Assembly (NCBI GenBank): GCA_005777315.1
Contig: SXMN01000090.1
Location: forward strand, 1-33,019
DNA length: 33,019 nucleotides
Reading direction: 5' to 3'
Origin: Verrucomicrobiales bacterium
GTDB taxonomy: Bacteria > Verrucomicrobiota > Verrucomicrobiia > Limisphaerales > F1-12-MAGs170
The notes below the pieces were generated by a model. That model was not told where the DNA came from. It made no database searches and saw nothing but the letters and a program-made list of their open reading frames with translations. Of the stretch, positions 4,452 through 28,323 are shown piece by piece. A program made the position numbers and the translations under genes. The number at the start of each line of letters is the position of its first letter. Position 1 is the stretch's first letter.

Positions 4452-5674
4452 CAAAAGGTGAAAAACTTGAGGTGCCAGCGATCGCGATCCGGCAAAGCGC
4501 CAAGCACGAGCTTTACGCGTTCGCTGTGGATGGCAAACGGCTCCATGATTTTGCGCAAGTGTCGCGACTCGCTCGAGACGAAAGCGAAAAAATAGCTGGC
4601 TACCAACGCCCCGAAGTCGTCGCGCACATTGCCGAAATCCGGAACTACCTAGAATCTGAGGGACCGATGCTACCAAACGCGATTGTCGTGGCGTTCAACT
4701 CACGCGTCCAGTTCAGGCCATTGAAGGGGACACGCCCTGACAAGGGACCGACCCATGGGCATCTGGTTATCCCAACCGATTCGGACACCGATGGCGCCAA
4801 GGCTGGCTGGATCGTTGACGGGCAGCAGCGAGCAGCAGCGATACGCGACGCTCGTCTGGATGCGTTTCAGGTATTCGTGACCGGGTTCATCACGGACAGC
4901 GTTGTGGAGCAGCGCGAACAATTCATCCTGGTCAATTCGACCAAACCGCTACCCAAAGGATTGATTTACGAACTACTTCCGGCAACGGATGTGCAACTCG
5001 CCAACCATCTGCAGCGGAGACGCTTCCCGGCCTATCTGCTTGACCGATTGAACTACGACTCCAGGTCGCCTTTGCACCTTGCGATCCAGACCCCAACGAA
5101 CCCGTTCTTGGACCTGAAAGTCCGTAGTCGGAGAGGCTTTCAGACAATGCTCCAACCCAAGCCGCAGGAAAGGGGGACTCCTGCCGACCCGAAAGTAGGC
5201 GAAGCCAAGCTTCAAGGCTTCATCAAGGACAACTCCATCCTGCGAATGCTTGAAAATAGTCTGCACGACGGCGCTTTGTATCGATGCCGACTGCAGGCAG
5301 ACGATGAGGCTGACACCGAGCGAATGCTGGAACTGCTCTTCAACTTCTGGGAAGCGGTGGCTGAAGTCTTCAAAGGAGCATGGGGGCAACCGCCGACACG
5401 CTCGCGCCTCACCCATGGTGTCGGGATCGTTTCGTTGGGATACCTGATGGACGCGATCGCCGACAGGTTTCGTTCAAAGGGGATTCCAACGGTAGATGAG
5501 TTTGCCGCGGATTTGTCTCCACTTAGTGCGCATTGCTCTTGGACCGATGGATACTGGAACTTCGGGCAGGGGAATCAGCGAAAGTGGAATGAAGTTCAGA
5601 ACACAACCAAGGACATCCAACTGGTCGCGAACCACTTGCTGATTCAATATAAGCGGCTTATTTGGTCGAAGTGA
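4448..5674 (+). CDS. DGQHR-motif protein DpdB, second copy
   Basis: The protein is 408 aa, beginning at the ATG overlapping the dpdA stop (ATGA). It carries YQRPEV (about 52-57), IVDGQQR (122-128) and a VNSTKPLPKGL segment about 30 residues later, parallel to the first copy at 2068. An insertion of roughly 30 residues (about 215-250, rich in charged residues) accounts for much of the extra length. The C-terminal half keeps the paired motif WGQPPTRSRLTHG, which matches WGKSPTQSRLMHG in copy one. The family is nucleotide-dependent and partners with DpdA. Having two full-length, motif-intact copies around one dpdA suggests a hetero-oligomer or division of labour. The gene ends 7 bp from the oppositely oriented DpdD-like gene with no obvious terminator between them. 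Confidence 0.82.
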   Translation: MTKGEKLEVPAIAIRQSAKHELYAFAVDGKRLHDFAQVSRLARDESEKIAGYQRPEVVAHIAEIRNYLESEGPMLPNAIVVAFNSRVQFRPLKGTRPDKGPTHGHLVIPTDSDTDGAKAGWIVDGQQRAAAIRDARLDAFQVFVTGFITDSVVEQREQFILVNSTKPLPKGLIYELLPATDVQLANHLQRRRFPAYLLDRLNYDSRSPLHLAIQTPTNPFLDLKVRSRRGFQTMLQPKPQERGTPADPKVGEAKLQGFIKDNSILRMLENSLHDGALYRCRLQADDEADTERMLELLFNFWEAVAEVFKGAWGQPPTRSRLTHGVGIVSLGYLMDAIADRFRSKGIPTVDEFAADLSPLSAHCSWTDGYWNFGQGNQRKWNEVQNTTKDIQLVANHLLIQYKRLIWSK

Positions 5675-13123: not shown

Positions 13124-13842
13124 CGTCCTCCCATATTTACTCGAAAAGCCTGCAGCAGATTTTTCTCTCGAAGCCAGGCAAGCACCTTGTCGTTCAATTC
13201 GCCAAGGGAAACACCTCCAGAATTGGCGACCTGCTCAATAAACTTTTTCACCTCTGGCGGAATATCTCCGAAATCCAATTTTTTAACCAACCGATGAATC
13301 TCGCGGCTCTTCTCTTCGGCTCGTTTAAGGACTTCGGCATCGCCAGGCAAGCTCTGCGCGAGAGCGTCCAACTCCTTGTGCAAAGTTTCAATCTTGGTTA
13401 TTTCGCTGCCGAAACGACCGCCTTGAAAGAATGGTAACCAGTCGTCGAGCTTGGGCGCGATTGCTCGTAGATGGGTTTCCCAGATTACGTCCAACGATTT
13501 TTCAAGGGCATCAGCGGCACTTTTCAGCGCGGTATCCGCCTTGGCCCAACCGCTTTGCTGCATAACCTTGTCCGGCTTGCTCACGAGTTTATCCCGAAGA
13601 TCCGGCAAGGTTTTCTGCAGCAGCGCATCAACCCCGTTTGGGACCAGCGAACGACCAACCGGAAGCAATTCGCCGCGTTGCATTCGGCGGAGAACGGCAA
13701 CGAGATGCTTCAAGCGGGCGAGGTGATTCGGCAAATTCTGGAGCAGCGGTTGCCAGGTCCGAAGGATTTGCTCGTTCGCCCCGATAGATTCCACCCGGGC
13801 TAATTTCTCGCGCAAGATCGCGTTTTGCTGAAGGAGTGTCAT
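13120..13842 (-). CDS. dpdI: DpdI-like small helical protein
   Basis: The protein is 240 aa. The start is ATG 13842, which overlaps the DpdH stop (ATGA) and has GGAGG a few bases upstream; an in-frame codon at 13866 would add 8 residues inside dpdH. The sequence is Leu-, Lys- and Glu-rich with heptad-like stretches at both ends (residues 1-60 and 150-220), suggesting coiled coils. No catalytic motif is visible. It lies between the ATPase DpdH and the helicase DpdJ, so it may be an adaptor linking them. The name is given by position and size within the Dpd gene order, and its molecular role is unknown. Confidence 0.65.
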   Translation of the reverse strand: MTLLQQNAILREKLARVESIGANEQILRTWQPLLQNLPNHLARLKHLVAVLRRMQRGELLPVGRSLVPNGVDALLQKTLPDLRDKLVSKPDKVMQQSGWAKADTALKSAADALEKSLDVIWETHLRAIAPKLDDWLPFFQGGRFGSEITKIETLHKELDALAQSLPGDAEVLKRAEEKSREIHRLVKKLDFGDIPPEVKKFIEQVANSGGVSLGELNDKVLAWLREKNLLQAFRVNMGGR

Positions 13843-16800
13843 CGTATTTCCTCCACATCCTGCCAAAGTTTTTCCACGTCCTCCACTTCCTTTGCCCGGC
13901 GCTGACCCTCATCGGCAACGCTTGCTGGGGCTTTGGCGAGTTGCTCATCGACCGACTCGGTCGTCTCCTGTAGAAACACTGCGTATTGCTTGAAAATCCG
14001 CCGGGAGGTTTCTTCGGTGCGAGAATCGGCCTGCGCCAGCGCCGAAAGAATCACGCCGAAATCGTTTGTTTCCGCAACCTTTTTGGCAAACTCCAGCGTC
14101 TCCTTGAGGCGGCACTCCGGCAGTTTGTTAAGTGAATCTCGAAGGCTGTCATAAGTGACCCCGACTCCGCGGAACACATGTGCTTGATGTGCGGCGAGCG
14201 CCGTTTTCTTCATATCATCGCCCAGCACGCGCACGTCGAAATCTTTCCCAACCCATTCGTCAATCTCACGGCGCCATTGCCCGAGTGCAGCGCCCCGCTG
14301 GGCGGCGGCATTTTTCAGCAGATTTTTCAGGTCTCGCAAGTGCTGGAGCAGGGACGGATAACCTCTAAAATATTCCAGATCCCCTTGAAAGAGCCACGAA
14401 CCTCGCAGTTCCTGAATAGCCGCGAGCAATTCCGTAGCGTCGATTGCCTGCACGGTATCTCCGGTTCCCTGGCGGGCTGCCACCAGGCGCAGGAGCAACT
14501 CTCTCGCCTCGCTTCGAAAGCGTCGGGCACCCGACCGCAGCCTGAACCATTGATCTTCCGTGTCGGGCACTGTTCCCTCTTCAGGAGGTGCGCTGGCAAA
14601 GAGCGCGGTAAGATTGTCCGCGTCCGTATTAGCGGACGCGCCCTCCAAACCCAGCAGGCGGGCGCCAATGAGCAACGATTGAGCGAGTGGGCGAATTGCC
14701 TCACGAGGAAGCGAGTGAGCCTGCCTTCGCATCCAGTCCTCAGTCTGTCCGACCATGTGATAGATCAAGTTAGCGTAGGCCGCGCTATCGGCTTCTCCCC
14801 CGTCGTAATTCCAACTGCGGTTACCGTCTTGGAAACGGATCACAGCAGCGAGTGCGCTGAAGAATTGATCGGCGCGCGATTCATCCTTCAACTCCTCATC
14901 GGTGATCGCGACAGCCACAGTACTGGCCGCAGTGGGATTTCCGATGCCCACTTTGGGCAACCAAATTCGGGTGTGATCGAGAGGCGCAGATTCGATCAGG
15001 AGCGATTCCCAGTCAATCCACTGAGCCACAGCATCACACAAAAACTTCCTGACCCTGTTTGCATCCGGACTGCTGATTATACCCTTTACTCGCCAGTCTT
15101 GAAGTTTTTGTAACCAAGGATCGCGATTCTCCTCCTTCTTCTGGCTCGGCTCCTTCCCTTTCGCTTGCTCCACCTTAACCGGTCGAGTCTGTTTTTCCGC
15201 AGCTTCCGACCACTTGACCGGCGGCAGCTTAAAAGCGCGATAAACGGCCTCTGACAAACACGCGGCTTCACTGGGGGCTTGCGGGTCGTTGCCCCAATGG
15301 AAAATAAGCGCGGCTAGCCGATCGACCTGCTCTGGGTCCGCTCGCTGGTTGAGTTCGCGTAGGACGGGTTGCGCCAGTTTTCCTCGGACAAACTGCTGAA
15401 AATTTCCCGGCGGAAAACTCGCGGCGTCAAAAAGGGGACGGTTGGTTAAGAGCGTTTCGCGCAAGACGAGATTGAGCAACTCGCGCGGATTGAAGACGAA
15501 GGTATTGCCCTCTCGCAGATGACGTCGCGCCAGTTGATGAATGACGCCCTGATTGAACGGGAAAAGCGGATGGTTTCCGCGCGAAGAAAAACCGAACTCC
15601 TTCAACGCTGCGGCGCTTTCGGTATCGAGATCATCCTGCCGTTCGTCGTAGAAATTCGGCAACCAATCCTGGAGATCGCTTGCGCCCTTCGCGCGTTTCT
15701 TGAACTCCTTTTGGAGACGCGCTTTGCCCCAGCGCGCCGCATTCAGATATCCGCCAACAAAATTGGTGAAGGTGGCGATGGCTTCTGCTTCTTCGCCACT
15801 TGCGAAAGGACGCTCTTCGATGCGCCACTCATACTGGGCACGGGTCAGAACTGTTTCACGATTGGCGAGATAGCCTTCGGTGACAGCCAGCGCCGTTCGC
15901 ATCACGCAGAGATGTTGCTTTCCATCGCGAATGCCCTCACGAATCATAGCATCGAGCAGGCTTCCCTGAATGCCGGCGAGTGCGGCGAAATCCTCCACCA
16001 GTAGCACGAGTTCCTTGCGGTCTTTGAGCAACTGCTCGCGCAGTTTCACGAAGAGGTCGGTGAGAGAGTTACCGCCAAAATCCAGCAATTCACCGAGCGC
16101 GGGATCGATTACCTCATTGAGAACGCTCACCGCGACTTTTCGAGCCTGCCCATCTCGCAAAGTGAGGTTCATCAGATACGCCTTGGTCGGCTGCGCGAGC
16201 GTGTTGCGATCGAGTTTTTCGTCGAGTCTCAGGTCGTCCTCGGTAAAGTGATAGTCGGTCCCTTTGGCGACGTGCGCGCCTTGCATGTATCGCTCGGCGA
16301 TCCGAGCGATCACGCCTTTGCCGGTTCCTTCGTTAGCCATGAAATGCGCCGTGATTGCAGGATCCTGCAAGAGCGCAGGCAAACCTCTTGGATCACAGTG
16401 CGTCATCCGCTCCTGACCAAGCTTCCGTTCCTCAGGAGTCGCCTTGCCTTCCAGCATCCGGGCACGTGCTTGCCGATGGGCACGCTCCAGCGCGACCAGC
16501 AGTTTCTCGCGCAGTCCATAGGTAGCCGCCAGCAGATCTGGCGGCATGCGCGCGGAGGTGAGTTCCTTGCGGAGCGTGCCGTAGCGTTCCTCGGGCAGTT
16601 TTTCCAAGATCAACTCCAGGACACGCCGCAGGCTCGCGCTTTTCGGGATGCGCACAATGTGCCGCAGCACACCATCATCGCGATTTTGCAAATGTGCATC
16701 CAGCCAGCGGATCATGTGCGATTTGCCGACCCCGGAGTTTCCAACGATCGGAACGAGCAGCGTCCCTGAGGCGAGGTTTTTCGCCAATACCGCCTCGAGC

Positions 16801-16976
16801 AAATCGGTTTCCTTCTTTTCCTCGGGTTCCGTCTGGGCGCGCAGATGGCGACGGACGAGGCGCATCGGCTGATGCACCGCGAGGAACACGGCCACGTCGG
16901 CCGTTTCGGCTTCAGTGACCAGACACTCGTCGCAATTCTGCGGGCTGGGCCAGAATTCTTTAAGTGATAGTTCCAT
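13839..16976 (-). CDS. dpdH: DpdH-like P-loop ATPase
   Basis: The protein is 1045 aa, ATG start 16 nt after the DpdG stop. A Walker A motif GNSGVGKS (79-86) lies after a short N-terminal segment, and a hydrophobic Walker B-type strand LVLLVEDFA (323-331) follows about 240 residues later. This arrangement is typical of STAND/AAA-like ATPases with inserted helices. The region near 600-640 (Lys/Glu-rich) is a charged linker, and the final 200 residues are helical. In Dpd systems this protein is part of the non-modifying, presumably restriction, set. The N-terminal segment contains two close cysteines (CDECL) that could bind metal. Neighbouring dpdG and dpdI suggest a motor complex with the helicases. 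The gene name rests on size, P-loop and synteny. Confidence 0.78.
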   Translation of the reverse strand: MELSLKEFWPSPQNCDECLVTEAETADVAVFLAVHQPMRLVRRHLRAQTEPEEKKETDLLEAVLAKNLASGTLLVPIVGNSGVGKSHMIRWLDAHLQNRDDGVLRHIVRIPKSASLRRVLELILEKLPEERYGTLRKELTSARMPPDLLAATYGLREKLLVALERAHRQARARMLEGKATPEERKLGQERMTHCDPRGLPALLQDPAITAHFMANEGTGKGVIARIAERYMQGAHVAKGTDYHFTEDDLRLDEKLDRNTLAQPTKAYLMNLTLRDGQARKVAVSVLNEVIDPALGELLDFGGNSLTDLFVKLREQLLKDRKELVLLVEDFAALAGIQGSLLDAMIREGIRDGKQHLCVMRTALAVTEGYLANRETVLTRAQYEWRIEERPFASGEEAEAIATFTNFVGGYLNAARWGKARLQKEFKKRAKGASDLQDWLPNFYDERQDDLDTESAAALKEFGFSSRGNHPLFPFNQGVIHQLARRHLREGNTFVFNPRELLNLVLRETLLTNRPLFDAASFPPGNFQQFVRGKLAQPVLRELNQRADPEQVDRLAALIFHWGNDPQAPSEAACLSEAVYRAFKLPPVKWSEAAEKQTRPVKVEQAKGKEPSQKKEENRDPWLQKLQDWRVKGIISSPDANRVRKFLCDAVAQWIDWESLLIESAPLDHTRIWLPKVGIGNPTAASTVAVAITDEELKDESRADQFFSALAAVIRFQDGNRSWNYDGGEADSAAYANLIYHMVGQTEDWMRRQAHSLPREAIRPLAQSLLIGARLLGLEGASANTDADNLTALFASAPPEEGTVPDTEDQWFRLRSGARRFRSEARELLLRLVAARQGTGDTVQAIDATELLAAIQELRGSWLFQGDLEYFRGYPSLLQHLRDLKNLLKNAAAQRGAALGQWRREIDEWVGKDFDVRVLGDDMKKTALAAHQAHVFRGVGVTYDSLRDSLNKLPECRLKETLEFAKKVAETNDFGVILSALAQADSRTEETSRRIFKQYAVFLQETTESVDEQLAKAPASVADEGQRRAKEVEDVEKLWQDVEEIR

Positions 16977-16991
16977 GAGTCGTTTCAGTAG

Positions 16992-17903
16992 TTACTTTGG
17001 GCGGCGGAAGCTAAAGTGGGAATATTCACCCACCACGCCGCGTTTGCGGCCGGTGAGTCGCGCTCGAGAAGGAAAGTCCGAGTCCTTCTTACCTTGCAGT
17101 GTTCCGTCGGATGTGAACCGCAGAAGAGCGCGACTGAGGCTGGTGGAAACTTGACCTGGGGGCGGGGAAAGCCATCCGTCCGGGCTTTCGTGCTCGCGGA
17201 GTTTATTTTCAACCAGTTGCCGATACCCCCCCTGATCCAGAACGGGCACGACGGAGGCGACGGAGGTGAGGAATTCATCCGCAGCCATGGTGGCGCGTTT
17301 TCCAAACACGATGGGGAGAGCATGGCGCAGCGCTTTCGTAGGATCGATGATTAAAGGGCTACCTTTGGTATTTCCAACAGTACCGAAACCAAGATATGGC
17401 ATCCACGCCCGGAGACCATTCCACCGAGTATCGTTCTGTCCAAAGATACCGTCGTTCCCCGGCATTTGTATTTTCATGATCGCCTGAACGCTCGGCCATG
17501 AGCTGTGCTCCGCTTCGTAAACATCTTGCGCCAGCAACCACGCTGTGGCGCGCGTGAAATCGGCGCAGCGGGAGTCTTCTGTTTCCCAAAACCGCTCGTT
17601 ATTTTCGGGAGCGAGGGCCCGCCGACTCGCCCATACGGGAAGCAAATCCTCACGCCGCTCCTCCTTAGGGACGAGTTGGCTTATGGAAATCTTGGGATTC
17701 ATGGCATCCCCGGAACTCTCGAAAAGTCCCAACTCGACCCACGTATTGAGCGTCCCCCGCGCATGCTTTGGCTCGCACAACCCGGCCGGCGCACACAGGC
17801 TGAGCAACCGGTCGCGATCCAGAGATTTTTCGGCTAGAAGCAATCGGTAAATGGCGACAAGCACGCCGCGTTTTCCGTCATTGGTGATGTTGAGTAGACT
17901 CAT
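16992..17903 (-). CDS. dpdG: DpdG-like protein
   Basis: The protein is 303 aa, with an ATG overlapping the DpdF stop (ATGA at 17900-17903). The first 80 residues (NDGKRGVLVAIYRLL, then helices and GTLNTWVELGLFE) look like a winged helix-turn-helix, implying DNA or protein binding. The rest has no recognised catalytic motif. It sits between the RecQ-like helicase DpdF and the ATPase DpdH, where DpdG is found in known clusters, and its length also fits. It could be a DNA-recognition subunit of the restriction arm; this is inference. Confidence 0.72.
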   Translation of the reverse strand: MSLLNITNDGKRGVLVAIYRLLLAEKSLDRDRLLSLCAPAGLCEPKHARGTLNTWVELGLFESSGDAMNPKISISQLVPKEERREDLLPVWASRRALAPENNERFWETEDSRCADFTRATAWLLAQDVYEAEHSSWPSVQAIMKIQMPGNDGIFGQNDTRWNGLRAWMPYLGFGTVGNTKGSPLIIDPTKALRHALPIVFGKRATMAADEFLTSVASVVPVLDQGGYRQLVENKLREHESPDGWLSPPPGQVSTSLSRALLRFTSDGTLQGKKDSDFPSRARLTGRKRGVVGEYSHFSFRRPK

Positions 17904-20575
17904 AGTTGCAGAAGGTTTTCCAGCGCATCCCAGCGCATCATGTTCGGTGGCGAGACATCCCCAATCGTGCGACCAGGGTGGCGGGCATCGGGCGTCCCAT
18001 CTGGCACGAAAATGAGATGGAACGGACGCTCAAGCAAAAGGAGATGCTCGGATATTGGCGCCAGCGTCGGCACGGGCGCAACAACACTCACACGTGGCAA
18101 AGGCCAACCGCTGGAACCGTGCGGATCGGTTTCACAAACCCCACGCACGAGCACAAATCGCTCCGGCGCATGCCGGTGGAGGTTTTGCAGCGGACCGGAT
18201 CCTAAACGCCAGGAGTCTGGCACAGCCAGTTCGCGAATACCGAGTTTCACGAGTCGCTCTACTGCCCGCAAGACTTCGCGCTGCCAGTCGCGGGTGATGG
18301 TGTAGGTGACGATCAAAAGCGGGAGACCGCGTGGCGGGATTATCTGCCGCAAGGCATCAGAGAGTCCTGCGCAAAGGCGACCCGGAGGGCGGACAGGCAA
18401 ACCTTCACTTCCATCGCCAACTTCGATGCCCGCCTCAGGCACGCAGTAAACGTCACGCAGAATGCGGTTGAGGTCGCGACGACCTGCGAGCACTTCGCGC
18501 ATGCGCCTCCAATTCAAACTGGCTGCGGCGAGCGTTTCAAGGCGGTTGCTCGCGACAACGGCCGCCCAATATTCTGGTGTCGACAGGTCGGCAGCGGCGT
18601 GCAATCGCACCGGGCAAAGCGACCAGTGCTCCTCCATTTTTTCTGCCAGACGTTTTTCAAACCCCGCCTCGGTCTCACCTTGCTCGATGGTCACCGTCGG
18701 AGGGCGGCGGCTTTCGATCGTCAGCGCGCCCGCGCGTGCCAGGAGGAGCAGCGTTTTCATGTTCCATCCCATATTGGCCTCGCTGTCCCACGTCTTCCCC
18801 GGTCGCAGGGCGCGAAGATTCGCTAGCATCATCTCGCCATCCCATTTGCTGCTGTGCCGAATGGCCTTCCAGCGCTCAAGCCCAAGTTCTTCGCCGATTA
18901 TCTTTGGGCCGCTGATTCCTTCCGCGACCTTGCAGTCTTCCTGCGCCCAGAGCAGCACTGACACGGAAGGGCAGCCATCGCGTCCGCCCCTGCCGACCTC
19001 CTGGTAAAAACGATCCACCGTTTCCGGCACGCAGGCGTGAATGACGAGGCGCACGTCGCCTTTGTCCATGCCCAACCCAAAGGCGGAAGTGGCCACCATC
19101 ACATCGAGTTGATTCTTGTGCCAGAGATCGATGGCTCGCTCACGCGCTCCGCCGTCAGTGCCACCGTGGATGCAACCGACTCGCAGCCACTGCTCCTTCT
19201 GCAAACGCTGGTGCCACCTCTTCGCCTCGACGCGCTCGGTCACGTAGAGAATCGCCGGGCGCGGTCCCCATCGTAGCACTTCCAGCACGCTCGCGACTTG
19301 CTCCGGCAAGCGGCGATTTTGTCCCGGAGGTGCTCCACCGGGATTCTCCGCAAACAATGACCCGCGCAGTTCCGCTGGGCTTTGGCATTCCGCGATGAAA
19401 TAATCGGGTTCAGGACGGAGATGCACGGAGGCTAGCGTTTCGATCTGATCTGCCGGGCCGAAAAAGGTATGAAGCGTGCGATACGATTCCTCCGTAAGGG
19501 TGGCTGTCATTAACACCGTGCGGAAGGCACAGTCCGAAGGACTTATTTGGCGCAACTGCTGCCAGAGGCCGCTCATTGCCTGAAAATCCGGGCGAAATCC
19601 GTTGCCCCACTGGGCGACGAGGTGCGCCTCATCCACGATGAACGCGCGAAGGAGGCCTTGGTGCGCAGCATCGTATAGGGCGCTGGCGAGGGCGCCGATG
19701 ATGCTTTCGGGCGCGGCGTAGATGATTCGCTGCTGGCCAGAACGGATGCGTTGGCGGATGGCATTCCGCTCATCAGGCTTCAGTTCACCGCGCCAGGCAT
19801 CGATCGGCACGCCCGGAAAAATTTCTCTCGCCTTGAATGCCTGATCATAGGCTAGGGCGATCGTGGGCACCACTACCACAGAGACGCCACCGGCGAAACC
19901 CAGCAACGCTGCGGAAAGACCGACCAGACTTTTGCCGGCACCGGTGGGCAGCGCGACCACCGTTACCGAACCAGGCGGGGAGAGCGCGACTCCGCGCACG
20001 GCATCTGCTTGAGAGGACGATAGATAATGGTCCAGCTTGAAGCGCTCACGAACCGCCGGATCGGCGGGAATAAGGTGCTGTTTCCGCCGCAGTTTTCCCT
20101 CTTCTGCAGCCTGGAAAGGGGGCCATTGCGTTTTCTGCTCAAGCCAATCGGGCAGCCACTCCTTCGCTTCGATCGTGCAGAATCCCGACCGAGGTGCATC
20201 GCTGACGAAGCAGCCATGAGCCTTCCACTCATCTCGGTCCGGCCACGGTGCCACGCATGGCACCTGCAATCGGGGATGCCCGTGAAACTTGGCCGCTTCG
20301 CGCCGGGCGACATAGCGGATGAGGCTCGCCAGATCGGCGGACCCAACGGGCGAAGATCCTTCCTTCAGTGCTCGCAGCGCGAGTCGCACCCGCTCGCACG
20401 GGCCATCAGGAAATGGCGTCGCGGGCATTACCGCATCTGGCCACGTCCTTAGAATTACGCTGATTTGTTGGAAACTCACTGGGAAATCATTGCTGGAGTG
20501 GAACTCCGGCCAGGAAAACCGCTCCGGCTGCGTCCAGTCGAATTCCGTGTTTATGAATGCTCGCCAGGAGCGCAT
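17900..20575 (-). CDS. dpdF: DpdF, RecQ-like DEAH helicase
   Basis: The protein is 891 aa. Superfamily 2 motifs are complete: Walker A PTGAGKS (210-216), DEAH (315-318), TAT (357-359), ATSAFGLGMDKGDV (about 495-508) and motif VI QEVGRGGRDG (525-534). The GLGMDK and GRGGRDG forms are typical of RecQ. An N-terminal 190-residue extension and a C-terminal 300-residue region are specific to this family. The ATG at 20575 lies 89 nt inside the end of dpdE. The next in-frame ATG would remove 49 residues, and GTG codons in between are alternatives, so the exact start is uncertain. The expected activity is 3'-5' unwinding of DNA in the restriction arm. Confidence 0.88.
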   Translation of the reverse strand: MRSWRAFINTEFDWTQPERFSWPEFHSSNDFPVSFQQISVILRTWPDAVMPATPFPDGPCERVRLALRALKEGSSPVGSADLASLIRYVARREAAKFHGHPRLQVPCVAPWPDRDEWKAHGCFVSDAPRSGFCTIEAKEWLPDWLEQKTQWPPFQAAEEGKLRRKQHLIPADPAVRERFKLDHYLSSSQADAVRGVALSPPGSVTVVALPTGAGKSLVGLSAALLGFAGGVSVVVVPTIALAYDQAFKAREIFPGVPIDAWRGELKPDERNAIRQRIRSGQQRIIYAAPESIIGALASALYDAAHQGLLRAFIVDEAHLVAQWGNGFRPDFQAMSGLWQQLRQISPSDCAFRTVLMTATLTEESYRTLHTFFGPADQIETLASVHLRPEPDYFIAECQSPAELRGSLFAENPGGAPPGQNRRLPEQVASVLEVLRWGPRPAILYVTERVEAKRWHQRLQKEQWLRVGCIHGGTDGGARERAIDLWHKNQLDVMVATSAFGLGMDKGDVRLVIHACVPETVDRFYQEVGRGGRDGCPSVSVLLWAQEDCKVAEGISGPKIIGEELGLERWKAIRHSSKWDGEMMLANLRALRPGKTWDSEANMGWNMKTLLLLARAGALTIESRRPPTVTIEQGETEAGFEKRLAEKMEEHWSLCPVRLHAAADLSTPEYWAAVVASNRLETLAAASLNWRRMREVLAGRRDLNRILRDVYCVPEAGIEVGDGSEGLPVRPPGRLCAGLSDALRQIIPPRGLPLLIVTYTITRDWQREVLRAVERLVKLGIRELAVPDSWRLGSGPLQNLHRHAPERFVLVRGVCETDPHGSSGWPLPRVSVVAPVPTLAPISEHLLLLERPFHLIFVPDGTPDARHPGRTIGDVSPPNMMRWDALENLLQL

Positions 20576-23500
20576 CGCGCACCCGCATTTCCATGGCCCA
20601 TTCTTCCTGCGCGAGAGTCGCCTCCCGCAGAGATTGGGAGAGCGCCTCGATCCGGCTTTGGCACTGTTCCTTCACGACGGTGGTTTCGACTTCCAGACGG
20701 GTGGCCAGTTCGCGCGTCAATTGCGCAAGATCCACCTGGCGCACCACCGCATCGGCGGCTGCCGCCCGGGCAGAACGGCAGCGATGCGGCCAGTTAGCGA
20801 GATCGAAATGTGACTGCACCGATGGCCAGCGGTCCTGGTTGATATTGGTGTCGGTGGCGCTCTTCACATAGGGCCGAACCAGTTCGGCGCGGGTCATTTC
20901 GTCTGGTTCATCCAGATCTTCGTTAAGCCACAAGGTTCGGGCGATCGGCGGGAAAACCGCGTCCGCGCGCCGCCGCAGCGCGGCTTCACTCAATTCGGGA
21001 TGCGCCTTCGCGAGCGCAGAGACTGCTTTCAAACCGGCCTCAATGACGAAATCAAAGCGCAGGAAGAGTTGGATCTCTGAGGTCTTAACTAGCGGGGAAA
21101 TTCGCCAGAAAGCGAAGCAGGTGCCACGGTCATCCCAGCGCAAATAGCGATGGAGACAGTCGAGCACCGGATTCCCAATCCGACCCAACCCCACTTTGCG
21201 GGAACGTGCGGTCTCGCGGAAAAAACTCAATGCCCAGGTCAGCGGTTGCTTGAAATGGGTGTGCCTGGCACCGAGTTCCACCGACCGCGTAAACCACAGT
21301 TGGAAGTCACGCACCGACATCAGCGTGGGGCGGTGCTGACCAGGTCGGATGTAGTGATACCGCGCTACATTATCTCTGGGGTTGTTTTCACCGACGCGGA
21401 TGAAGTGCAGGCGCTCGGTGAGCCATGCCTCCACCGGTGCCTGCAGTTTGGCGGAGTCCTCTTCGAGCGCTTCGATGCTCGCAGTTAGATCGCCCGCTTC
21501 GCCGCCGGTCATGACGTTGATGGAGTCGAGTTCATCCTGCGCGCGAATCGCTTTCAGTTCTTTTTGCAACACCCCCTGGTCGCCACCGAGGCGGTTGATG
21601 GACTCGCGAAAGGCCGGTTCGCCGTCCGTGAGCAGCGCGCTCGATAAGCTGCGCATCTCGTCTTCCACCACATATTGCAAAGCCGCGATCGAGCGGGAAA
21701 ACACCGCGTAAGCATCGGTCAAACACTCCAGCCACGCTTCCTGATAAGGACATTCCTCGGGGACTGGCGCCAGCGAGACCACGGCATGGCCCACGCCGAA
21801 GCGATCTAGCCGTCCCATGCGCTGCTCCAGCGAGTTTGGCGACAACGGAAAGTCAGCATGAATCATGCAGGTCCGTCCTCCTTGCAGATTGAGTCCCTCT
21901 TCGGCCCGGAAGTCACAAACCAGCAAAGCCGGAGTCGTCGCATCCCGGAAATCGTGCCAGCTTTCTTCCTCCAACCGATGGCGAAAAACCGGAACCCGAC
22001 GGGCGCGATTGAGCAAGGTAAAAAGCTGATCCGCGAGCGCAGGACTTGAGGTGAAAACCACAACGCGAACCCCCTTGGTCAGTTGCTCGTTCGCGATTTC
22101 ACCGATGCGCTGAATGCGATCCTGATTGGGATTAGGGACGCACTTCGCCGCCTTGAGGATTTCCTTTAGGATCGCCTGTTCCTCGAAAAATTGGGGCTGC
22201 GTTTGGAGAACCAACGCTCGATCTTGCGCCGCTAGCCGACCGAACGATTTGGCGGGAGGTTGCCCGGGGCACATCCGTTCAGCAACACACCACGCGAGCG
22301 CACTCAGATCACATGCACTCGCTTCGAGCAGCACGAGGAAGATGCTGCTGAGCGCGAGTGCTTCATCCGAATTTTGGCGATTCCAGATCGAAGCTGCCGC
22401 AGCCGCGCGCCACTTTTCCAACCCCTGCTCAACCAGACGGGCCACCGGATCGCTATACGGAACGCGAATCAGGCCCTGCCTTCCCGGAAGCAGGCCTTCC
22501 ACTTCTGGAGAACGGCGATTCCGCAGCAAACGGCGATGCAAGCGATACGTCTCGCTGAGATGCGTGCGCACCGCCCGGATTGCAGCGCACCGTTCAACTG
22601 AGTCCTCCGAAACAGAAACCTCCAACCACGGGCGAAGATTATCGAGGAGTCCCAGCATCCGACTATCCCGAGGAAACATCGAAGCCAATTGTTCGACCAT
22701 TCCTTCAATGAAAAAACTCTGCTGCCCTTCTGTGAAGGCGTAGAAAAGATCGGCCAGTTCCTGACGCTTTGAGACCTTCTCGCGAAAAGCCTCCTTATCG
22801 CTCAAACTGTAAACCGCTGGATCAAGTAGATGTAGCAGCGCCAGAAAACCGTCCTCATTGCGTCGGACCGGCGTAGCTGACAACAAAAGCAAACGGGACG
22901 CAGTTTTCGGCGCGGTGATAGCGCGCAGCAGTTCGAAACGGGTTCGCAATGAAGAACTCTTCGGCTGTTCCCATCCACGCACCGCTTGGTGAGCCTCGTC
23001 CACTACCACCATCCCCGCGGTAAGCTGCTCTCGCGGCGTCTCAGCCAATTTCTCCAAGGCCACAATCTTCACGTTGTGATCGAACCGTTCGCCCAACTGG
23101 CAGCGATCGGACAACTCCGATTCCCACTGCCCGACCAATGTCTCTGGCGCAATCACAAGGACGCGATGCGTCTGCAAATGATCCAGCACGTATTGGCGAA
23201 TGATGACACCAGCTTCGATTGTTTTTCCTAGACCGACTTCGTCCGCGAGCAAATATCGCTGCACCGGATCCTGTAATACGCGGCGCACGACTTCTACTTG
23301 GTGCCGCTCCAAAGCGATTGGCGCAGACAGGAACCCGGTCATCCCGGCTGATGCAGCCCGCTGGCGCACGAAGGACGCGAGCAACTCAGCCCGAGAACTG
23401 TGAAAAAACGGCGTCTCGCAAACGCGCGCAGCGAGGTGTTCACATGGGTCTTGAATCGGACGATTCCAGCGCGTGTAGACTTGGCTGTCGTGGAGGAGCA

Positions 23501-23819
23501 TCTCCCTATTGTTGGGAAGGGCGATGTAGCAATTACTATCTATGTGGTCGACGACACGTCCTGATCGCCAACAGGCATCCGTCTGATCGAAGAAATAAAC
23601 ACGGGTCTGAGGGTCCAATCGAACCATTGCGATGTTCGCGGGGTCATCAAGCACCCGATGTCGCTCAGTCGAGATTGGTGAATCGAAGAATTCGATCTCA
23701 ATCTTGTCCCCATTCTTTCCTACGAATTTGCCGAACCCCAATTCGACATAAGATTTGGAACGGACAAAACATCCTATCACTCTAGGGTCCTCCCATCGAA
23801 TATCGACAAATGTTTGCAC
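20487..23819 (-). CDS. dpdE: DpdE, SNF2-like helicase
   Basis: The protein is 1110 aa, GTG start 8 nt after the preceding gene. The first 120 residues look like two small beta-rich modules that could bind DNA (GCFVRSKSYVELGFGKFV, then VYFFDQTDACWRSGRVVD). The motor follows: DEVGLGKT (193-200), DEAH (274-277), SATP (314-317) and a C-terminal helicase lobe with FPLSPNSLEQRMGRLDRFG (about 690), the form seen in SNF2/HepA-like ATPases. Such proteins usually translocate on double-stranded DNA without full unwinding. In Dpd clusters this gene belongs to the set dispensable for base synthesis, so a role in sensing or attacking unmodified DNA is inferred. Its 3' end overlaps dpdF by 89 nt. Confidence 0.88.
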   Translation of the reverse strand: MQTFVDIRWEDPRVIGCFVRSKSYVELGFGKFVGKNGDKIEIEFFDSPISTERHRVLDDPANIAMVRLDPQTRVYFFDQTDACWRSGRVVDHIDSNCYIALPNNREMLLHDSQVYTRWNRPIQDPCEHLAARVCETPFFHSSRAELLASFVRQRAASAGMTGFLSAPIALERHQVEVVRRVLQDPVQRYLLADEVGLGKTIEAGVIIRQYVLDHLQTHRVLVIAPETLVGQWESELSDRCQLGERFDHNVKIVALEKLAETPREQLTAGMVVVDEAHQAVRGWEQPKSSSLRTRFELLRAITAPKTASRLLLLSATPVRRNEDGFLALLHLLDPAVYSLSDKEAFREKVSKRQELADLFYAFTEGQQSFFIEGMVEQLASMFPRDSRMLGLLDNLRPWLEVSVSEDSVERCAAIRAVRTHLSETYRLHRRLLRNRRSPEVEGLLPGRQGLIRVPYSDPVARLVEQGLEKWRAAAAASIWNRQNSDEALALSSIFLVLLEASACDLSALAWCVAERMCPGQPPAKSFGRLAAQDRALVLQTQPQFFEEQAILKEILKAAKCVPNPNQDRIQRIGEIANEQLTKGVRVVVFTSSPALADQLFTLLNRARRVPVFRHRLEEESWHDFRDATTPALLVCDFRAEEGLNLQGGRTCMIHADFPLSPNSLEQRMGRLDRFGVGHAVVSLAPVPEECPYQEAWLECLTDAYAVFSRSIAALQYVVEDEMRSLSSALLTDGEPAFRESINRLGGDQGVLQKELKAIRAQDELDSINVMTGGEAGDLTASIEALEEDSAKLQAPVEAWLTERLHFIRVGENNPRDNVARYHYIRPGQHRPTLMSVRDFQLWFTRSVELGARHTHFKQPLTWALSFFRETARSRKVGLGRIGNPVLDCLHRYLRWDDRGTCFAFWRISPLVKTSEIQLFLRFDFVIEAGLKAVSALAKAHPELSEAALRRRADAVFPPIARTLWLNEDLDEPDEMTRAELVRPYVKSATDTNINQDRWPSVQSHFDLANWPHRCRSARAAAADAVVRQVDLAQLTRELATRLEVETTVVKEQCQSRIEALSQSLREATLAQEEWAMEMRVRDALLASIHKHGIRLDAAGAVFLAGVPLQQ

Positions 23820-23827
23820 GCGACGGT

Positions 23828-24703
23828 CTAGCTCACATTAGATTCTCGAGCACTGCATAGGCGATCTCTGCCGACGCGACACGCCGGATGGTGACAAGGG
23901 TCGGCTGCGGGACAAAAATTCTGCGTCAGCAACTGCCGCGCTCCGGTCTGACCGCCGAAGGCCAGTAGGGCGAGATCGAGTTCGGCGGCACGGCAGGAGT
24001 TCGCGATGGAATACTCCTGGAGGAAGCGAACGCATTGCCTGAAGGCTAGGTCGCCCGTTTCGCGATTCACGATGCCGAGGCGGCGCGCGAGGCGCATGAC
24101 GATGAGGTCGGGTTTGATCGAGTCGTAATCGAGGTCGAGGAGCAACTGCAGCAGGCTGGTGGTGGAACGGAAGAACGGCATTTCGCGGCGCCGAAGGTCG
24201 AACTGGAGCGTATTGAAGCGTTGCCAGAACTGTTCAATGTGCGCCGCAGTGCGAATCCGACGGGGAATCTGAAAACTTTCGAGGTAGGCGGCGAACGAAC
24301 CGCAGTCGCGAATAATCTTATTGAGGATACGGGCGCATAGCACGATACGGCAAACCTTGTTGCGAAATCGGAAGAGCGTGAGGTGCTTCCAATAATTGGC
24401 AAGGATGCGCTCCGGATTACGACGGGCGAGTGCGGCGGGAACAAAACTGGCGAAGGCTTCCTTAAAAACTGGCGTCTGGATCAGGCCGCCAATCAGCGAG
24501 GAACGCGAACCTTGGCTGTAGGCAATAGCCACGCAGATGCGGCGCATGATTTCGTGGTCATCAGGCAGGGGGTCGAAAAAGCGCCGTGAGCGGCGAGCGA
24601 TCTCCTCTCGCCATTCGGGCGTGGCCGAGGCGTCGCAAAGCTTTAGGATGACCGCTACGGCGGTCGAAGGGTTAGGCCCGTGACATTGGGTCAGTGTGAG
24701 CAC
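23828..24703 (-). CDS. HhH-GPD/Tag-like DNA glycosylase candidate inside the Dpd operon
   Basis: The protein is about 291 aa from GTG 24703, which overlaps the folE2 stop by 13 nt. The frame stays open to 24952, but those 83 residues lie within folE2 and are arginine-rich shadow, so I reject them. Two stretches recall base-excision glycosylases: a Tag-like helix pair (RFRNKVCRIVLCARIL, then GSFAAYLESF, 112-144) and IKPDLIVMRLARRLG (196-210), which matches the HhH-GPD pattern 'xVDxxVxRvxxRLG' with Asp199 in the catalytic position. The C-terminus has four cysteines (264, 270, 275, 283) reminiscent of the EndoIII/MutY iron-sulfur loop but with different spacing. It sits between preQ0 synthesis and dpdE. 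Possible roles are excision of mis-inserted or unmodified bases, or strand attack. The assignment is by eye. Confidence 0.6.
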   Translation of the reverse strand: MLTLTQCHGPNPSTAVAVILKLCDASATPEWREEIARRSRRFFDPLPDDHEIMRRICVAIAYSQGSRSSLIGGLIQTPVFKEAFASFVPAALARRNPERILANYWKHLTLFRFRNKVCRIVLCARILNKIIRDCGSFAAYLESFQIPRRIRTAAHIEQFWQRFNTLQFDLRRREMPFFRSTTSLLQLLLDLDYDSIKPDLIVMRLARRLGIVNRETGDLAFRQCVRFLQEYSIANSCRAAELDLALLAFGGQTGARQLLTQNFCPAADPCHHPACRVGRDRLCSARESNVS

Positions 24704-25524
24704 ACGACGGCGAAGGCGGAGTGGTTGTGGATGCTCTCGTGGTTGACAGCGCTGACCTCGAACCAGGCAACTCGCTTGTCTTTCATTAGAAACCCAGCGG
24801 CGTTGCGCACGACATCCTCCACAAAGACCGGGTTGTCGTAGGCCTGCATCGTGACGTGGCGTTCGTCTGAACGCTTCAACAGCGGATAGACGGGAGAGGA
24901 GGCGGAACGCTCGGCAAGTTCGATAAGTTCCTCGAACCAGATCAACTCCCACTGCTTGCCCTTTCGCCGAGGTCGCACCGAAATTGTGATGTAGCCCCGC
25001 TGGTTGTGCGCGCCATAGTCACTGATCTCCTTCGAGCACGGGCAGAGGGTTCCCACGGGCACCTTGACGCGCAGCACGAAGTCATCCTCACTGGCGTTTG
25101 ACTCCGCAACGAAAGCACACTGGTAATCCATCGGTGCCCGCTGTCCGGTGACCGGGGCGGAACGGTGGAGGAAATATGTGAACTCCAACTCGATGTGAGC
25201 CGCCTCGGCCTCGAGTCGCTGCTTCAACTCATGCAGCATGATCGGCAGCGTGTGCATGGTGAACTCGCCCTCGTGGCGGCAGAGCACCTCGACGAAGCGA
25301 CTCATGTGAGTGCCCTTGAAGTGATGTGGAAGATTCACCGACATCGAGACCCGCGCAGCCGTCTGCTGCCGCTGGCTTTCGCGATCCAAAACCGCAATAG
25401 GGAAGGTGAGGTCACAGACGCCGACCTTGTTGATCTCGATGCCCCGCTGGTCGCGCGACTTCTGGATGTCAGCCAAAGGTTTTTTAGCCGCGTAAGTTCC
25501 GACTGGTCGCCGATTATTCTTCAT
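24691..25524 (-). CDS. folE2: GTP cyclohydrolase FolE2
   Basis: The protein is 277 aa, ATG start overlapping the queD stop by 11 nt. It makes 7,8-dihydroneopterin triphosphate from GTP, the first step to preQ0 (and to folate). The FolE2 type is recognised by the N-terminal VGVCDLTFPI segment, the central GTLCPCSKEIS motif with Cys161/Cys163 (catalytic cysteine region), HNQRGYI and the C-terminal ESIHNHSAF. Length fits the family. FolE2 works with metals other than zinc, whereas the common FolE is zinc-dependent. Being in the operon makes precursor supply independent of the host's folate genes. Start and stop are both overlapped by neighbours, so it is translationally coupled. Confidence 0.92.
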   Translation of the reverse strand: MKNNRRPVGTYAAKKPLADIQKSRDQRGIEINKVGVCDLTFPIAVLDRESQRQQTAARVSMSVNLPHHFKGTHMSRFVEVLCRHEGEFTMHTLPIMLHELKQRLEAEAAHIELEFTYFLHRSAPVTGQRAPMDYQCAFVAESNASEDDFVLRVKVPVGTLCPCSKEISDYGAHNQRGYITISVRPRRKGKQWELIWFEELIELAERSASSPVYPLLKRSDERHVTMQAYDNPVFVEDVVRNAAGFLMKDKRVAWFEVSAVNHESIHNHSAFAVVCSH

Positions 25525-25969
25525 ATTCGGCCCATGAGCTGCTGGTTTCCCAGACGCGGACCTTTACGACGCGCACAGTCGGGCGGAGTTGATACTTCGC
25601 CGAAGGATTCGCCGTGTAGGCGGCAAGATTGCGCTTCAACTCTTCGTGCACGCGGCGGGCCATGACCTCCGTAGTGGGGTCAATCCCGTCGAAACTGATG
25701 ATGCGCTCGCCGTAGGCATTCTTGAGCATATCGTGCTGCGGATCCTTGGTGTTCACGCACAGCGCGTGGTCCCACGCCTGAAGAAAATGGCCCATGGCTT
25801 CCTTGAGCGATTTGAAGTCGCAGACCATCTCGTTCTCGTCCAAATCGTCCGCTTCGAGGACGAATTCGACCTTGCGAGAGTGGCCGTGCGGAAACTTGCA
25901 GAGGTCGGGATGCTTGGAGAGCATGTGCCCGCTTTCGATCTCGAAGGTTTTGCAGATTCGGTATGGCAT
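25514..25969 (-). CDS. queD: 6-carboxy-5,6,7,8-tetrahydropterin synthase QueD
   Basis: The protein is 151 aa, ATG immediately after the queE stop (TGAATG). It converts dihydroneopterin triphosphate to 6-carboxytetrahydropterin. Zinc ligands His15 (SGHML) and His28/His30 (FPHGH), catalytic Cys24 (DLCKFPHGH) and the Asp67-His68 pair (WDHAL) are all visible, as is the substrate Glu in VWETSSS near the C-terminus. The length is slightly above the usual 120-140 aa for the family. It is part of the folE2-queD-queE-queC block that supplies preQ0 for DpdA. Confidence 0.94.
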   Translation of the reverse strand: MPYRICKTFEIESGHMLSKHPDLCKFPHGHSRKVEFVLEADDLDENEMVCDFKSLKEAMGHFLQAWDHALCVNTKDPQHDMLKNAYGERIISFDGIDPTTEVMARRVHEELKRNLAAYTANPSAKYQLRPTVRVVKVRVWETSSSWAEYEE

Positions 25970-26662
25970 TCAGGTCCCTCGCGTATGGCCGAACAGTTCG
26001 ACGTGCAGGCGATGGCAAAAACGATACCCATGCCGCTTACAAAGCTCCACCAAAGTTTCATTCCGGCCCCGGATTTTTTCAACCGTGGTCCCCTCGGGCA
26101 TAAGCAGGACTTTGTGCGGCGGAACGGGGAGCTTCAAATCGGCCAGCAAAACGCGGATTTCGCCCACATCATCGGCGGAGGTTACGACGAACTTCAACTG
26201 GTAGTTGCAGTGGTTGATCCACGCGCGGATGACGTCGGGTTGCCGGCGTAGTTGCTCGTGCTTCTCACGCCAACCGGCAGTGAGGCGTTCGTCCGGAGCG
26301 GAGTTGCTGAGCTTGGGACTGAGCGAGGCGAGGTCGCACGCGATGCCCTCGGGCGGAACCGTGGCGGCGGTCTCGATGGTGATGTGTTTGCCCGCGGAGC
26401 GGAGCGCCTGCGCGAGATCGCGGATGCCCTTGGCGACCATCGGTTCACCGCCGGTAAGCACGCAGTGCTGAGCCGGGTGCTTGGCAACTTCGTCGACGAT
26501 CTCCGCGATGGACATCTCCGTGCCTTCGGGATTCCACGAGGCATACATGGTGTCGCACCAGTTGCAGCGGAGATTGCAGCCAGAGGTGCGGACGAACACC
26601 GAAGGAACCCCCGTCAGTTCGCCCTCCCCCTGAACGGAATAGAAAATTTCCGAGACAAACAT
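25970..26662 (-). CDS. queE: 7-carboxy-7-deazaguanine synthase QueE (radical SAM)
   Basis: The protein is 230 aa, ATG directly abutting the queC stop. A radical SAM enzyme that rearranges 6-carboxytetrahydropterin to 7-carboxy-7-deazaguanine. The cluster motif is Cys29-x3-Cys33-x2-Cys36 (CNLRCNWCDT), with the substrate-binding FYSVQGEGE at the N-terminus and TGGEP (SAM-binding) near residue 80. The CX3CX2C form is the canonical radical SAM arrangement. It has the usual QueE length and is in an uninterrupted biosynthetic block. Confidence 0.95.
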   Translation of the reverse strand: MFVSEIFYSVQGEGELTGVPSVFVRTSGCNLRCNWCDTMYASWNPEGTEMSIAEIVDEVAKHPAQHCVLTGGEPMVAKGIRDLAQALRSAGKHITIETAATVPPEGIACDLASLSPKLSNSAPDERLTAGWREKHEQLRRQPDVIRAWINHCNYQLKFVVTSADDVGEIRVLLADLKLPVPPHKVLLMPEGTTVEKIRGRNETLVELCKRHGYRFCHRLHVELFGHTRGT

Positions 26663-27364
26663 TCAGGCAACGGCTGCTGCAGGTTTGGGCGGCAACGGTG
26701 AAGTGCTGGCGTAAACGGTGGGGTCGACCAATCCAGCCACCTGAAAGGCCTCGCGGCGCTCGACGCACGTGCCGCAGGTTCCGCAGTGAACGTCCTCACC
26801 CTTGTAGCAGGACCATGTTTGCGCAAAATCCACACCGAGTTCGTGGCCGCGCTGGGCGATCTCCGCCTTCGTGTTGTGGATGAACGGGCGCAAAATCTCG
26901 ATGGCGGCGTAGGTGCCGAGGCGGATGGCGTCGCCCATAGCCTTCATAAAATCCTCACGGCAGTCGGGGTAGATCGCGTGGTCGCCTGAGTGGGCGGCGA
27001 TGACCAAGCCCTGCGCCTCAATGGACTCGGCGTAGCCGCCGGCGACCGCAAGCATGATGCCGTTACGAAACGGCACAACCGTCTGCTTCATGTTCTGCTG
27101 TTCGTAGTGACCGTCGGGAATCGCGCCGCCGGACTTCAAGAGGTCGGACTTGAAGAGTTGCCCGACGAAATCGAGGCGGATGGCCCGGTGTGGGATGCCG
27201 AGAGCCTGGCAGTGCCGCTGAGCGAAAGGGATCTCTTTGTGGTTGTGCTTGGACCCGTAATCGAAGCTCAAAGCACCGACGGTTTCGTGTTGCCTATGCG
27301 CCTCGTAGAGGGCAGCTACCGAATCCATGCCGCCGCTGATCAAAACTACAACTTTTTTCTTCAT
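26663..27364 (-). CDS. queC: 7-cyano-7-deazaguanine (preQ0) synthase QueC
   Basis: The protein is 233 aa. It converts 7-carboxy-7-deazaguanine to preQ0 with ATP and ammonia. The N-terminal SGGMDS (9-14) is the PP-loop pyrophosphatase motif, and the C-terminal Cys cluster (CYKGEDVHCGTCGTC) is the zinc site of the family. The start codon overlaps the queF stop (ATGA at 27361-27364). PreQ0 made here is the branch point: DpdA can use it for DNA and QueF can reduce it. Confidence 0.95.
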   Translation of the reverse strand: MKKKVVVLISGGMDSVAALYEAHRQHETVGALSFDYGSKHNHKEIPFAQRHCQALGIPHRAIRLDFVGQLFKSDLLKSGGAIPDGHYEQQNMKQTVVPFRNGIMLAVAGGYAESIEAQGLVIAAHSGDHAIYPDCREDFMKAMGDAIRLGTYAAIEILRPFIHNTKAEIAQRGHELGVDFAQTWSCYKGEDVHCGTCGTCVERREAFQVAGLVDPTVYASTSPLPPKPAAAVA

Positions 27365-27825
27365 TTCTTGCCTCCATTGTTGACTGAGCGTTTTGACCCG
27401 CTCTCACCCTGCGGGTGCTCGGCGGTTACGGTCAAGGCCAGGCCACCACGCGCGACAAAACGGCCCTCAACACGCATGCGCCGTGGGTGACAGGCGGCAA
27501 CGAGATCGTCAAGGATTCGGTTGATCACCGCCTCATTGAAGGAATATACATTGCGGTAGGATGACAGATAGAGCTTGAGCGACTTCGTCTCCACGCAACG
27601 GTCGTCCGGGACGTATTCAACAACGATTTCTGCGAAATCTGGTTGGCCAGTTACGGGGCACAGCGATGTGAAGTCCGGGCAATCAATCCGGATCGAGTAG
27701 TCACGCGGCCTGTTAGGGTTCGGGAAGGCCTCAAGCGTGGCCTGCTTCGGCGATTTTGGAAATGCCGCTTGAGGATTACCCAGCAGCGTCAGGGCAGCGT
27801 ATTTTGGGTTTCGGGCACGTTTCAT
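27361..27825 (-). CDS. queF: NADPH-dependent preQ0 reductase QueF
   Basis: The protein is 154 aa, first gene of the long minus-strand operon. It reduces the nitrile of preQ0 to the aminomethyl group of preQ1. Catalytic Cys56 lies in FTSLCPVTGQPDF with Asp63 as proton donor, and the NADPH-binding QueF motif is ETKSLKLY (79-86). It is the short single-domain form. The C-terminal 15 residues are Ser/Gly/Lys-rich and probably disordered. preQ1 is normally the tRNA queuosine precursor and is not needed for ADG in DNA, so its place in this operon is noteworthy. Either the operon also serves tRNA, or the DNA base is derived from preQ1. Confidence 0.94.
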   Translation of the reverse strand: MKRARNPKYAALTLLGNPQAAFPKSPKQATLEAFPNPNRPRDYSIRIDCPDFTSLCPVTGQPDFAEIVVEYVPDDRCVETKSLKLYLSSYRNVYSFNEAVINRILDDLVAACHPRRMRVEGRFVARGGLALTVTAEHPQGESGSKRSVNNGGKK

Positions 27826-27942: not shown

Positions 27943-28323
27943 CTATGAAATGTTAGCTGGCCTTCCCTGCATTGACCCGTTCTGAAGCGCCTCAACAATC
28001 CCGATCATCCCCCGCGTATCCAGCCCGCAATAGTCGTCGAGTTCGGTGAAGACGCGGCCTCGCTCCTCATCAGCCATCTCGCCAAATACAGCCGCCAAAT
28101 ACAACCTGCTCGCCGTTCCCCCGTCCTGAATGGCCAGTTGCTCGTAACCACTGCCCGTGATCACCGGCAGGACGGCCTTGATGCTCGCGCTACCCCGTTG
28201 TTGAGGATCGTAGAAGTCGAACGCGCGGAAGAAAGGGAATCCCACGGTCGCATTCCCTCCTTCGCCTGTTCCTGGCACAAAGTCCATCGTGCCCATTGAG
28301 GACGAACATGGCCTGATGGACAA
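27943..28323 (-). pseudogene. C-terminal remnant of a DUF2779-family protein
   Basis: The minus-strand frame from about 28243 to 27943 encodes roughly 100 residues resembling the C-terminal end of DUF2779 proteins (FDFYDPQQRGSASIKAVLP, then QDGGTASRLY and YCGLDTRGM). In full-length members this tail follows a long nuclease-like region, which is missing here. The first 25 residues of the open frame (28323 to about 28243) look like an antisense shadow of the neighbouring PcfJ-like remnant. The gene has therefore lost its 5' portion and promoter. The family assignment is from memory of the conserved tail. Confidence 0.6.

What the first reader, a model, noticed from the sequence alone, without database searches (positions are those of the whole stretch)
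23828..24703. HhH-GPD-like DNA glycosylase candidate with a C-terminal four-cysteine cluster embedded in the Dpd operon
The IKPDLIVMRLARRLG segment matches the region around the catalytic Asp of HhH-GPD glycosylases, a Tag-like helix precedes it, and Cys264/270/275/283 resemble a displaced Fe-S loop. It lies between preQ0 synthesis and the helicases. A base-excising enzyme here could remove mis-inserted deazaguanine or attack unmodified DNA, making it a possible effector or proofreading component of the system.
Basis: partly seen in the sequence, partly recalled or inferred. Interest (0 to 1): 0.75.

Follow-up and report, generated by a model that had tools for sequence, protein, structure and literature searches.

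The report
Tag-like glycosylase riding a preQ0 operon
A gene inside a bacterial DNA-modification (Dpd) island really does encode a base-removing enzyme of the DNA-glycosylase type, but its relatives show that it travels with the genes that make the modified base (preQ0) rather than with the Dpd defence genes, so it is probably an accessory base-handling enzyme and not a standard Dpd effector.

Summary
A 291-aa ORF lies on the MINUS strand (24703-23828), overlapping folE2 by 13 nt and ending 8 nt before dpdE, with IKPDLIVMRLARRLG, Asp199 and Cys264/270/275/283 as described. It is a divergent HhH-GPD-type glycosylase: it passes the Pfam Adenine_glyco cut-off (26.7 against 25 bits), its family profile matches TAG (hhalign 97.6%), and a relative's model finds OGG2, MutY, TAG, EndoIII and Qng1 in the PDB. 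Asp199 (KPD) is invariant, but the hairpin glycines, a Schiff-base lysine and TAG's own catalytic Glu and Zn motif are missing. The four cysteines are conserved only in the nearest homologue (52% identity), with non-EndoIII spacing.

The 'Dpd component' reading is not supported. The nearest Dpd island (G275, same dpdJ-K fusion) joins folE2 directly to dpdE; four other Dpd clusters lack the gene, and no plasmid carrying dpdA has it. Five genomes with a relative have no dpdA above cut-off. The nearest homologue (G820) sits at the same place, the end of queF-queC-queE-queD-folE2, in a genome without detectable dpdA. So it most likely belongs to the que cassette: a monofunctional N-glycosylase, substrate unknown, possibly a 7-deazaguanine.

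The parts
23828..24703 (-). Tag-like HhH-GPD-type glycosylase gene (291 aa, GTG start)
   Evidence: ORF; PF03352 26.7 bits; homologue G820 begins at the matching position
24512..24517 (-). SQ motif (Ser63-Gln64), at the place of the Gln of the EGxQAGLSW helix of TAG
   Evidence: Ser63 invariant and residue 64 Gln or Asn where the family alignment covers it; alignment with TAG
24134..24181 (-). degenerate helix-hairpin-helix region MPFFRSTTSLLQLLLD (no hairpin glycines, no Schiff-base Lys)
   Evidence: comparison with EndoIII LPGVGRKTA from general knowledge
24107..24115 (-). KPD motif with putative catalytic Asp199
   Evidence: invariant in all 8 family members and in 4 of 4 sister-family proteins
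23855..23914 (-). C-terminal C-X5-C-X4-C-X7-C cluster (Cys264/270/275/283), putative variant Fe-S or Zn loop
   Evidence: all four conserved in G820 homologue, absent from more distant members
24691..25524 (-). folE2 (GTP cyclohydrolase), directly upstream, overlapping
25514..25969 (-). queD
   Evidence: TIGR03367, sub-cutoff
25970..26662 (-). queE
   Evidence: QueE models, sub-cutoff
26663..27364 (-). queC
   Evidence: TIGR00364 above cut-off
27361..27825 (-). queF (preQ1 synthase), first gene of the que cassette
   Evidence: TIGR03139 above cut-off
20487..23819 (-). dpdE, directly downstream; start of the Dpd restriction block
   Evidence: NF041062 above cut-off

Best explanation
The gene encodes a divergent TAG-related N-glycosylase of the HhH-GPD fold that belongs to a queF-queC-queE-queD-folE2-glycosylase cassette. 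That cassette supplies preQ0/preQ1 and, of the genomes examined, runs on into a Dpd island only in this one. Proposed mechanism: a flipped-out or free nucleotide base enters the helical pocket, invariant Asp199 stabilises the oxocarbenium ion (no Schiff-base Lys, hence monofunctional), the base is released, and the C-terminal Cys4 loop braces the C-terminus or a DNA contact. Shown here: fold class by profile and predicted structure, position and invariance of the Asp, cassette linkage in two genomes, absence from other Dpd islands. Inferred: catalysis, metal binding, and a purine substrate. A 7-deazaguanine substrate (mis-incorporated dPreQ0/dPreQ1/dADG in DNA, or a nucleotide from which the base is recovered) is a guess from linkage, about 0.35.
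For: Pfam PF03352 above cut-off for the window protein (26.7 bits) and for G820 (27.8 bits). Family profile matches solved TAG chains (E 1.7e-4). hhalign to TAG 97.6% and to a KPD/Fe-S sister family 97.4% with KPD and Asp243 in register. Foldseek: TAG ranks 1-9 with prob 1.0; OGG2, MutY, TAG, EndoIII and Qng1 fill ranks 1-14 for the L003 homologue model. Cassette: G820 has queF-queC-queE-queD-folE2-glycosylase in the same order, 53-74% identical gene by gene, with no dpdA. The closest Dpd island, G275, has folE2 15 nt from dpdE with no glycosylase and no queF, and its queE/queD are only 36/29% identical to the window's, against 60/64% for G820.
Against: Only one independent cassette copy was found; other que operons of the order lack the gene (five closest). 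In the window it is tightly packed into the Dpd transcription unit. Direct profile match to Nth/MutY is not significant (5.7%). The AlphaFold models are modest (pLDDT 53 and 64), the C-terminal third of the window model is below 50, and no Foldseek E-value is below 0.001. The G820 genome is 94% complete, so a missed dpdA is possible. More distant homologues are linked to neither que nor Dpd.
Confidence: 0.55

Rival explanations
1. Accessory Dpd effector or proofreader: it removes unmodified guanine at Dpd sites in invading DNA (restriction by base excision), or mis-inserted deazaguanine in host DNA.
For: Tight packing with folE2 and dpdE in one transcription unit. Base-excision defence exists: Brig1 (PMC11078745) and restriction glycosylases (PMC10273834).
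Against: Absent from the closest Dpd island and four others and from all plasmid dpdA records. Homologues occur in genomes without dpdA. Not among the co-localised domains listed in the passages read of a survey of 2,335 Dpd windows (PMC11888242). Dpd already has its own PLD-like protein and helicases.
Confidence: 0.15
2. 7-deazaguanine nucleotide hydrolase (functional analogue of Qng1 or QueK): it frees preQ0, preQ1 or a queuine-like base from nucleotides for reuse, without acting on DNA.
For: Linkage to the que cassette in both close members. Loss of hairpin glycines that contact the DNA backbone in related enzymes. Qng1 (DUF2419) is among the structure hits (prob 0.33 and 0.66). Such hydrolases exist (PMC11130926).
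Against: No match to the Qng1 Pfam family appeared in the scan up to E = 1. OGG2, MutY, EndoIII and TAG score higher. A de novo pathway needs no salvage. The Cys loop position is typical of DNA-acting members.
Confidence: 0.2
3. Ordinary DNA-repair glycosylase for an alkylated or oxidised purine that happens to sit next to the que genes.
For: Closest to TAG in sequence. Distant homologues lie in unrelated contexts.
Against: The genome already has Nth, MutY, AlkA-like and Ogg-like genes and a TAG fragment. Same position after folE2 in two families of the order.
Confidence: 0.25

Closest known systems
DNA-3-methyladenine glycosylase I (TAG, PF03352)
   Same: Helices around residues 48-182, conserved Lys116 and Ala124 region; profile match 97.6%
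   Different: Lacks the N-terminal RCxW / YHDxEWG region and the catalytic Glu of the EGxQAGLSW helix; has the KPD Asp and, in two members, a Cys4 tail
Unnamed TAG-like/KPD/Fe-S proteins (L030, L031, L032, L036)
   Same: KPD motif, C-terminal Asp-helix-YGQ then Cys4 loop; hhalign 97.4%
   Different: Loop is C-X6-C-X2-C-X5-C as in EndoIII in L030-L032 (PF10576 20.7 bits in L031); hairpin glycine kept
EndoIII / MutY / archaeal OGG2 (HhH-GPD)
   Same: Predicted fold, Asp position, Fe-S-like loop position
   Different: No LPGVG hairpin, no Schiff-base Lys, different Cys spacing; no significant sequence-profile match to own-genome Nth/MutY
Qng1 / DUF2419 queuosine-nucleotide glycosylase
   Same: Fold hit (prob 0.33-0.66); link with 7-deazaguanine genes
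   Different: No sequence match in the Pfam scan; substrate untested
Dpd island of G275 (same class)
   Same: Same dpd gene set and dpdJ-dpdK fusion (59% identity), folE2 next to dpdE
   Different: No glycosylase, no queF, different queE/queD

Membership tests
HhH-GPD superfamily | HhH-GPD core fold | tested here: met
   PDB hits of two models are TAG, OGG2, MutY, EndoIII, most with prob 0.7-1.0, but E above 0.005 and modest pLDDT
HhH-GPD superfamily | Catalytic Asp after the hairpin | tested here: met
   Asp199 invariant in 8 members and the sister family; pocket position itself not seen
HhH-GPD superfamily | Glycine-containing HhH hairpin (LPGVG type) | tested here: not met
   MPFFRSTTSL in the window protein; no glycine in most members
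EndoIII/MutY Fe-S subgroup | C-X6-C-X2-C-X5-C loop | tested here: not met
   C-X5-C-X4-C-X7-C; conserved in 2 of 8 members only
EndoIII/MutY Fe-S subgroup | Bound 4Fe-4S cluster | not testable with these tools
   needs purified protein
TAG (PF03352) | Score above Pfam cut-off | tested here: met
   26.7 against 25 bits; other members straddle the cut-off
TAG (PF03352) | Zn-site / RCxW N-terminus and catalytic Glu | tested here: not met
   match starts at model position 22; position of Glu is Ala61 in a hand alignment
Dpd system component | Recurs in Dpd islands | tested here: not met
   1 of 6 islands examined by profile (the window itself); 0 of 26 plasmid records with a dpdA match by tblastn
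Qng1 (DUF2419) | Sequence match to the family | tested here: not met
   not in the Pfam scan up to E = 1
que cassette | Same position after folE2 in another genome without dpd | tested here: met
   G820 contig C313, one case

The most novel reading that the evidence does not exclude
A dedicated 7-deazaguanine glycosylase: an enzyme made with preQ0 that excises 7-deazaguanine bases from DNA or nucleotides, either to keep them out of the genome or to recycle them, and which could give Dpd-type modification an erasing step.
Probability: 0.25. Interest if true: 0.78.

Novelty: new variant of a known kind. Interest (0 to 1): 0.42.

Why it matters
No enzyme that removes 7-deazaguanine bases from DNA came up in the papers searched here. 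A glycosylase encoded at the end of a preQ0 operon is a concrete candidate that can be assayed directly. The analysis also points to a TAG-like subfamily with an EndoIII-type Fe-S loop (L030-L032) that links the two enzyme types in sequence, and it corrects a natural but unsupported assignment of this gene to the Dpd machinery.

Tried and rejected
Fe-S loop as evidence from one sequence: rejected, 23% of shuffles give 4 Cys in 20 residues; conservation in G820 is the real evidence. Phages: no relative. Viral contigs: three scans, none. preQ1 riboswitch or other RNA in window, L082 and L114: none. The weak hits L005-L016 and L078-L081 that were read out are mostly ordinary TAG genes, not members of this family. 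Direct homology to the genome's Nth/MutY by profile: not significant. Key primary papers on Dpd and Qng1 are not held.

Full report
What is there. The reported span holds one ORF on the minus strand, 24703 to 23828, 291 aa from a GTG. Upstream on the same strand lie queF, queC, queE, queD and folE2; downstream lie dpdE, F, G, H, I, a dpdJ-dpdK fusion and dpdD. A divergent operon on the plus strand carries a DUF6884 gene (dpdC-like, below the Pfam cut-off), dpdB, dpdA and a second dpdB. The ORF overlaps folE2 by 13 nt and ends 8 nt before dpdE, so co-transcription is likely (inference).

What the protein is. Pfam gives PF03352 (methyladenine glycosylase I) at 26.7 bits, above its cut-off of 25; NCBIfam and PADLOC give nothing. 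Relatives at about 30% identity were found in three Desulfuromonadales-type or deltaproteobacterial MAGs, on Vibrio megaplasmids, and as a partial copy in G498. A 52%-identical homologue lies in G820 of the same order. In the eight-sequence alignment Lys116, Ala124, Trp160, Lys197-Pro198-Asp199, Asp243, Gly250 and Gln252 are invariant. The profile matches solved TAG chains at E 1.7e-4 and a TAG profile at 97.6% by hhalign. Foldseek of the window model (pLDDT 53) puts TAG at ranks 1-9; the model of the L003 homologue (pLDDT 64) puts archaeal OGG, MutY, TAG, EndoIII and the queuine-salvage glycosylase DUF2419 in the first 14. The E-values of these fold matches are weak (best 0.0067), so they support but do not prove the fold.

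Active site. Asp199 takes the place of the catalytic Asp of EndoIII-type enzymes by sequence pattern (VDTHIF against KPDLIV; EndoIII letters from general knowledge) and by profile alignment with the sister family L030/L031/L032/L036, which also has KPD. The Schiff-base Lys of bifunctional enzymes is replaced by Ser/Thr and the hairpin glycines are missing (MPFFRSTTSL), so a monofunctional enzyme with altered DNA contact is predicted. TAG's own catalytic Glu and its N-terminal Zn motif are not present.

The cysteines. The protein has 12 Cys, and chance gives four within 20 residues in 23% of shuffles. The more distant members end before this tail. But G820 keeps all four with the same spacing, C-X5-C-X4-C-X7-C, in a tail that is otherwise diverged. 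In the sister family the same place holds C-X6-C-X2-C-X5-C in L030-L032, recognised by PF10576 in L031 just above cut-off (20.7 against 20.5). A variant Fe-S or Zn loop is therefore plausible but unproven.

Is it part of Dpd? Against: the closest Dpd island found, G275 in the same class, has the same dpdJ-K fusion and folE2 placed 15 nt from dpdE with nothing between. Profile searches of Dpd clusters of Enterobacter, Methylobacterium, Allocoleopsis and Paenibacillus found no homologue. Of 26 plasmid records with a dpdA match, none is among the three records with a glycosylase match. G388, G389, G390, G498 and G820, which carry homologues, have no dpdA above cut-off. For a que link: in G820 the gene follows queF-queC-queE-queD-folE2 in the same order as here, and the window's que block resembles those of its order (queC 72-80% identity for five genomes, with queF) far more than that of the G275 Dpd island (queE 36%, queD 29%). 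The simplest account is that a lineage-type que-glycosylase cassette was joined to a Dpd island here. Other que operons of the order lack the glycosylase, so it is an optional part of the cassette, and the link rests on two genomes.

What it does. The genome has its own Nth, MutY, AlkA-like and Ogg-like genes and a TAG fragment, so a housekeeping repair role is less needed, though not excluded. Linkage to preQ0 synthesis makes a 7-deazaguanine substrate attractive: removal from DNA, or release from nucleotides as Qng1 and QueK do (PMC11130926). [quoted passage not shown]

Limits. Taxonomy is not given; the class pattern suggests Verrucomicrobiota (inference).

Noticed in passing
window 7952-13123 (-): dpdJ and dpdK are fused into one 1723-aa ORF (DpdJ 1-1536, DpdK 1551-1722); the same fusion occurs in G275 (L053:7824-12950).
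   Followed up: partly
window 27361-27825 (-): The que block feeding this Dpd island includes queF (preQ1 synthase), which would draw preQ0 away from DNA modification; no queF was found in the G275, Methylobacterium or Paenibacillus Dpd regions examined.
   Followed up: partly
L114 (G952) 9309-18347: A very similar queFCED operon with a shortened folE2 lies next to a divergent 318-aa TGT (PF01702 92 bits, DpdA model only 63 bits) and two Hel308-like helicases with HhH domains: possibly another deazaguanine system.
   Followed up: partly
L030:1480-2268, L031:1213-2016, L032:1204-2007 (+): TAG-like proteins (PF03352 48-61 bits) with a KPD motif and an EndoIII-spaced C-X6-C-X2-C-X5-C loop: an apparently undescribed TAG/Fe-S glycosylase subfamily (NCBIfam not tested).
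   Followed up: partly
window 27943-28323 (-): A short coding remnant upstream of queF reads ELDDYCGLDTRGMIGIVEAL, resembling the end of a DUF2779-type protein (from memory); looks like a truncated gene at the cassette border.
   Followed up: no
L059:19212-21278 (+): Paenibacillus DpdA is 689 aa with about 280 extra N-terminal residues before the DpdA domain, and a second TGT-like gene lies about 1 kb downstream.
   Followed up: no
window 2068-3204 and 4448-5674 (+): Two dpdB copies flank dpdA, as in G275 and Methylobacterium.
   Followed up: partly
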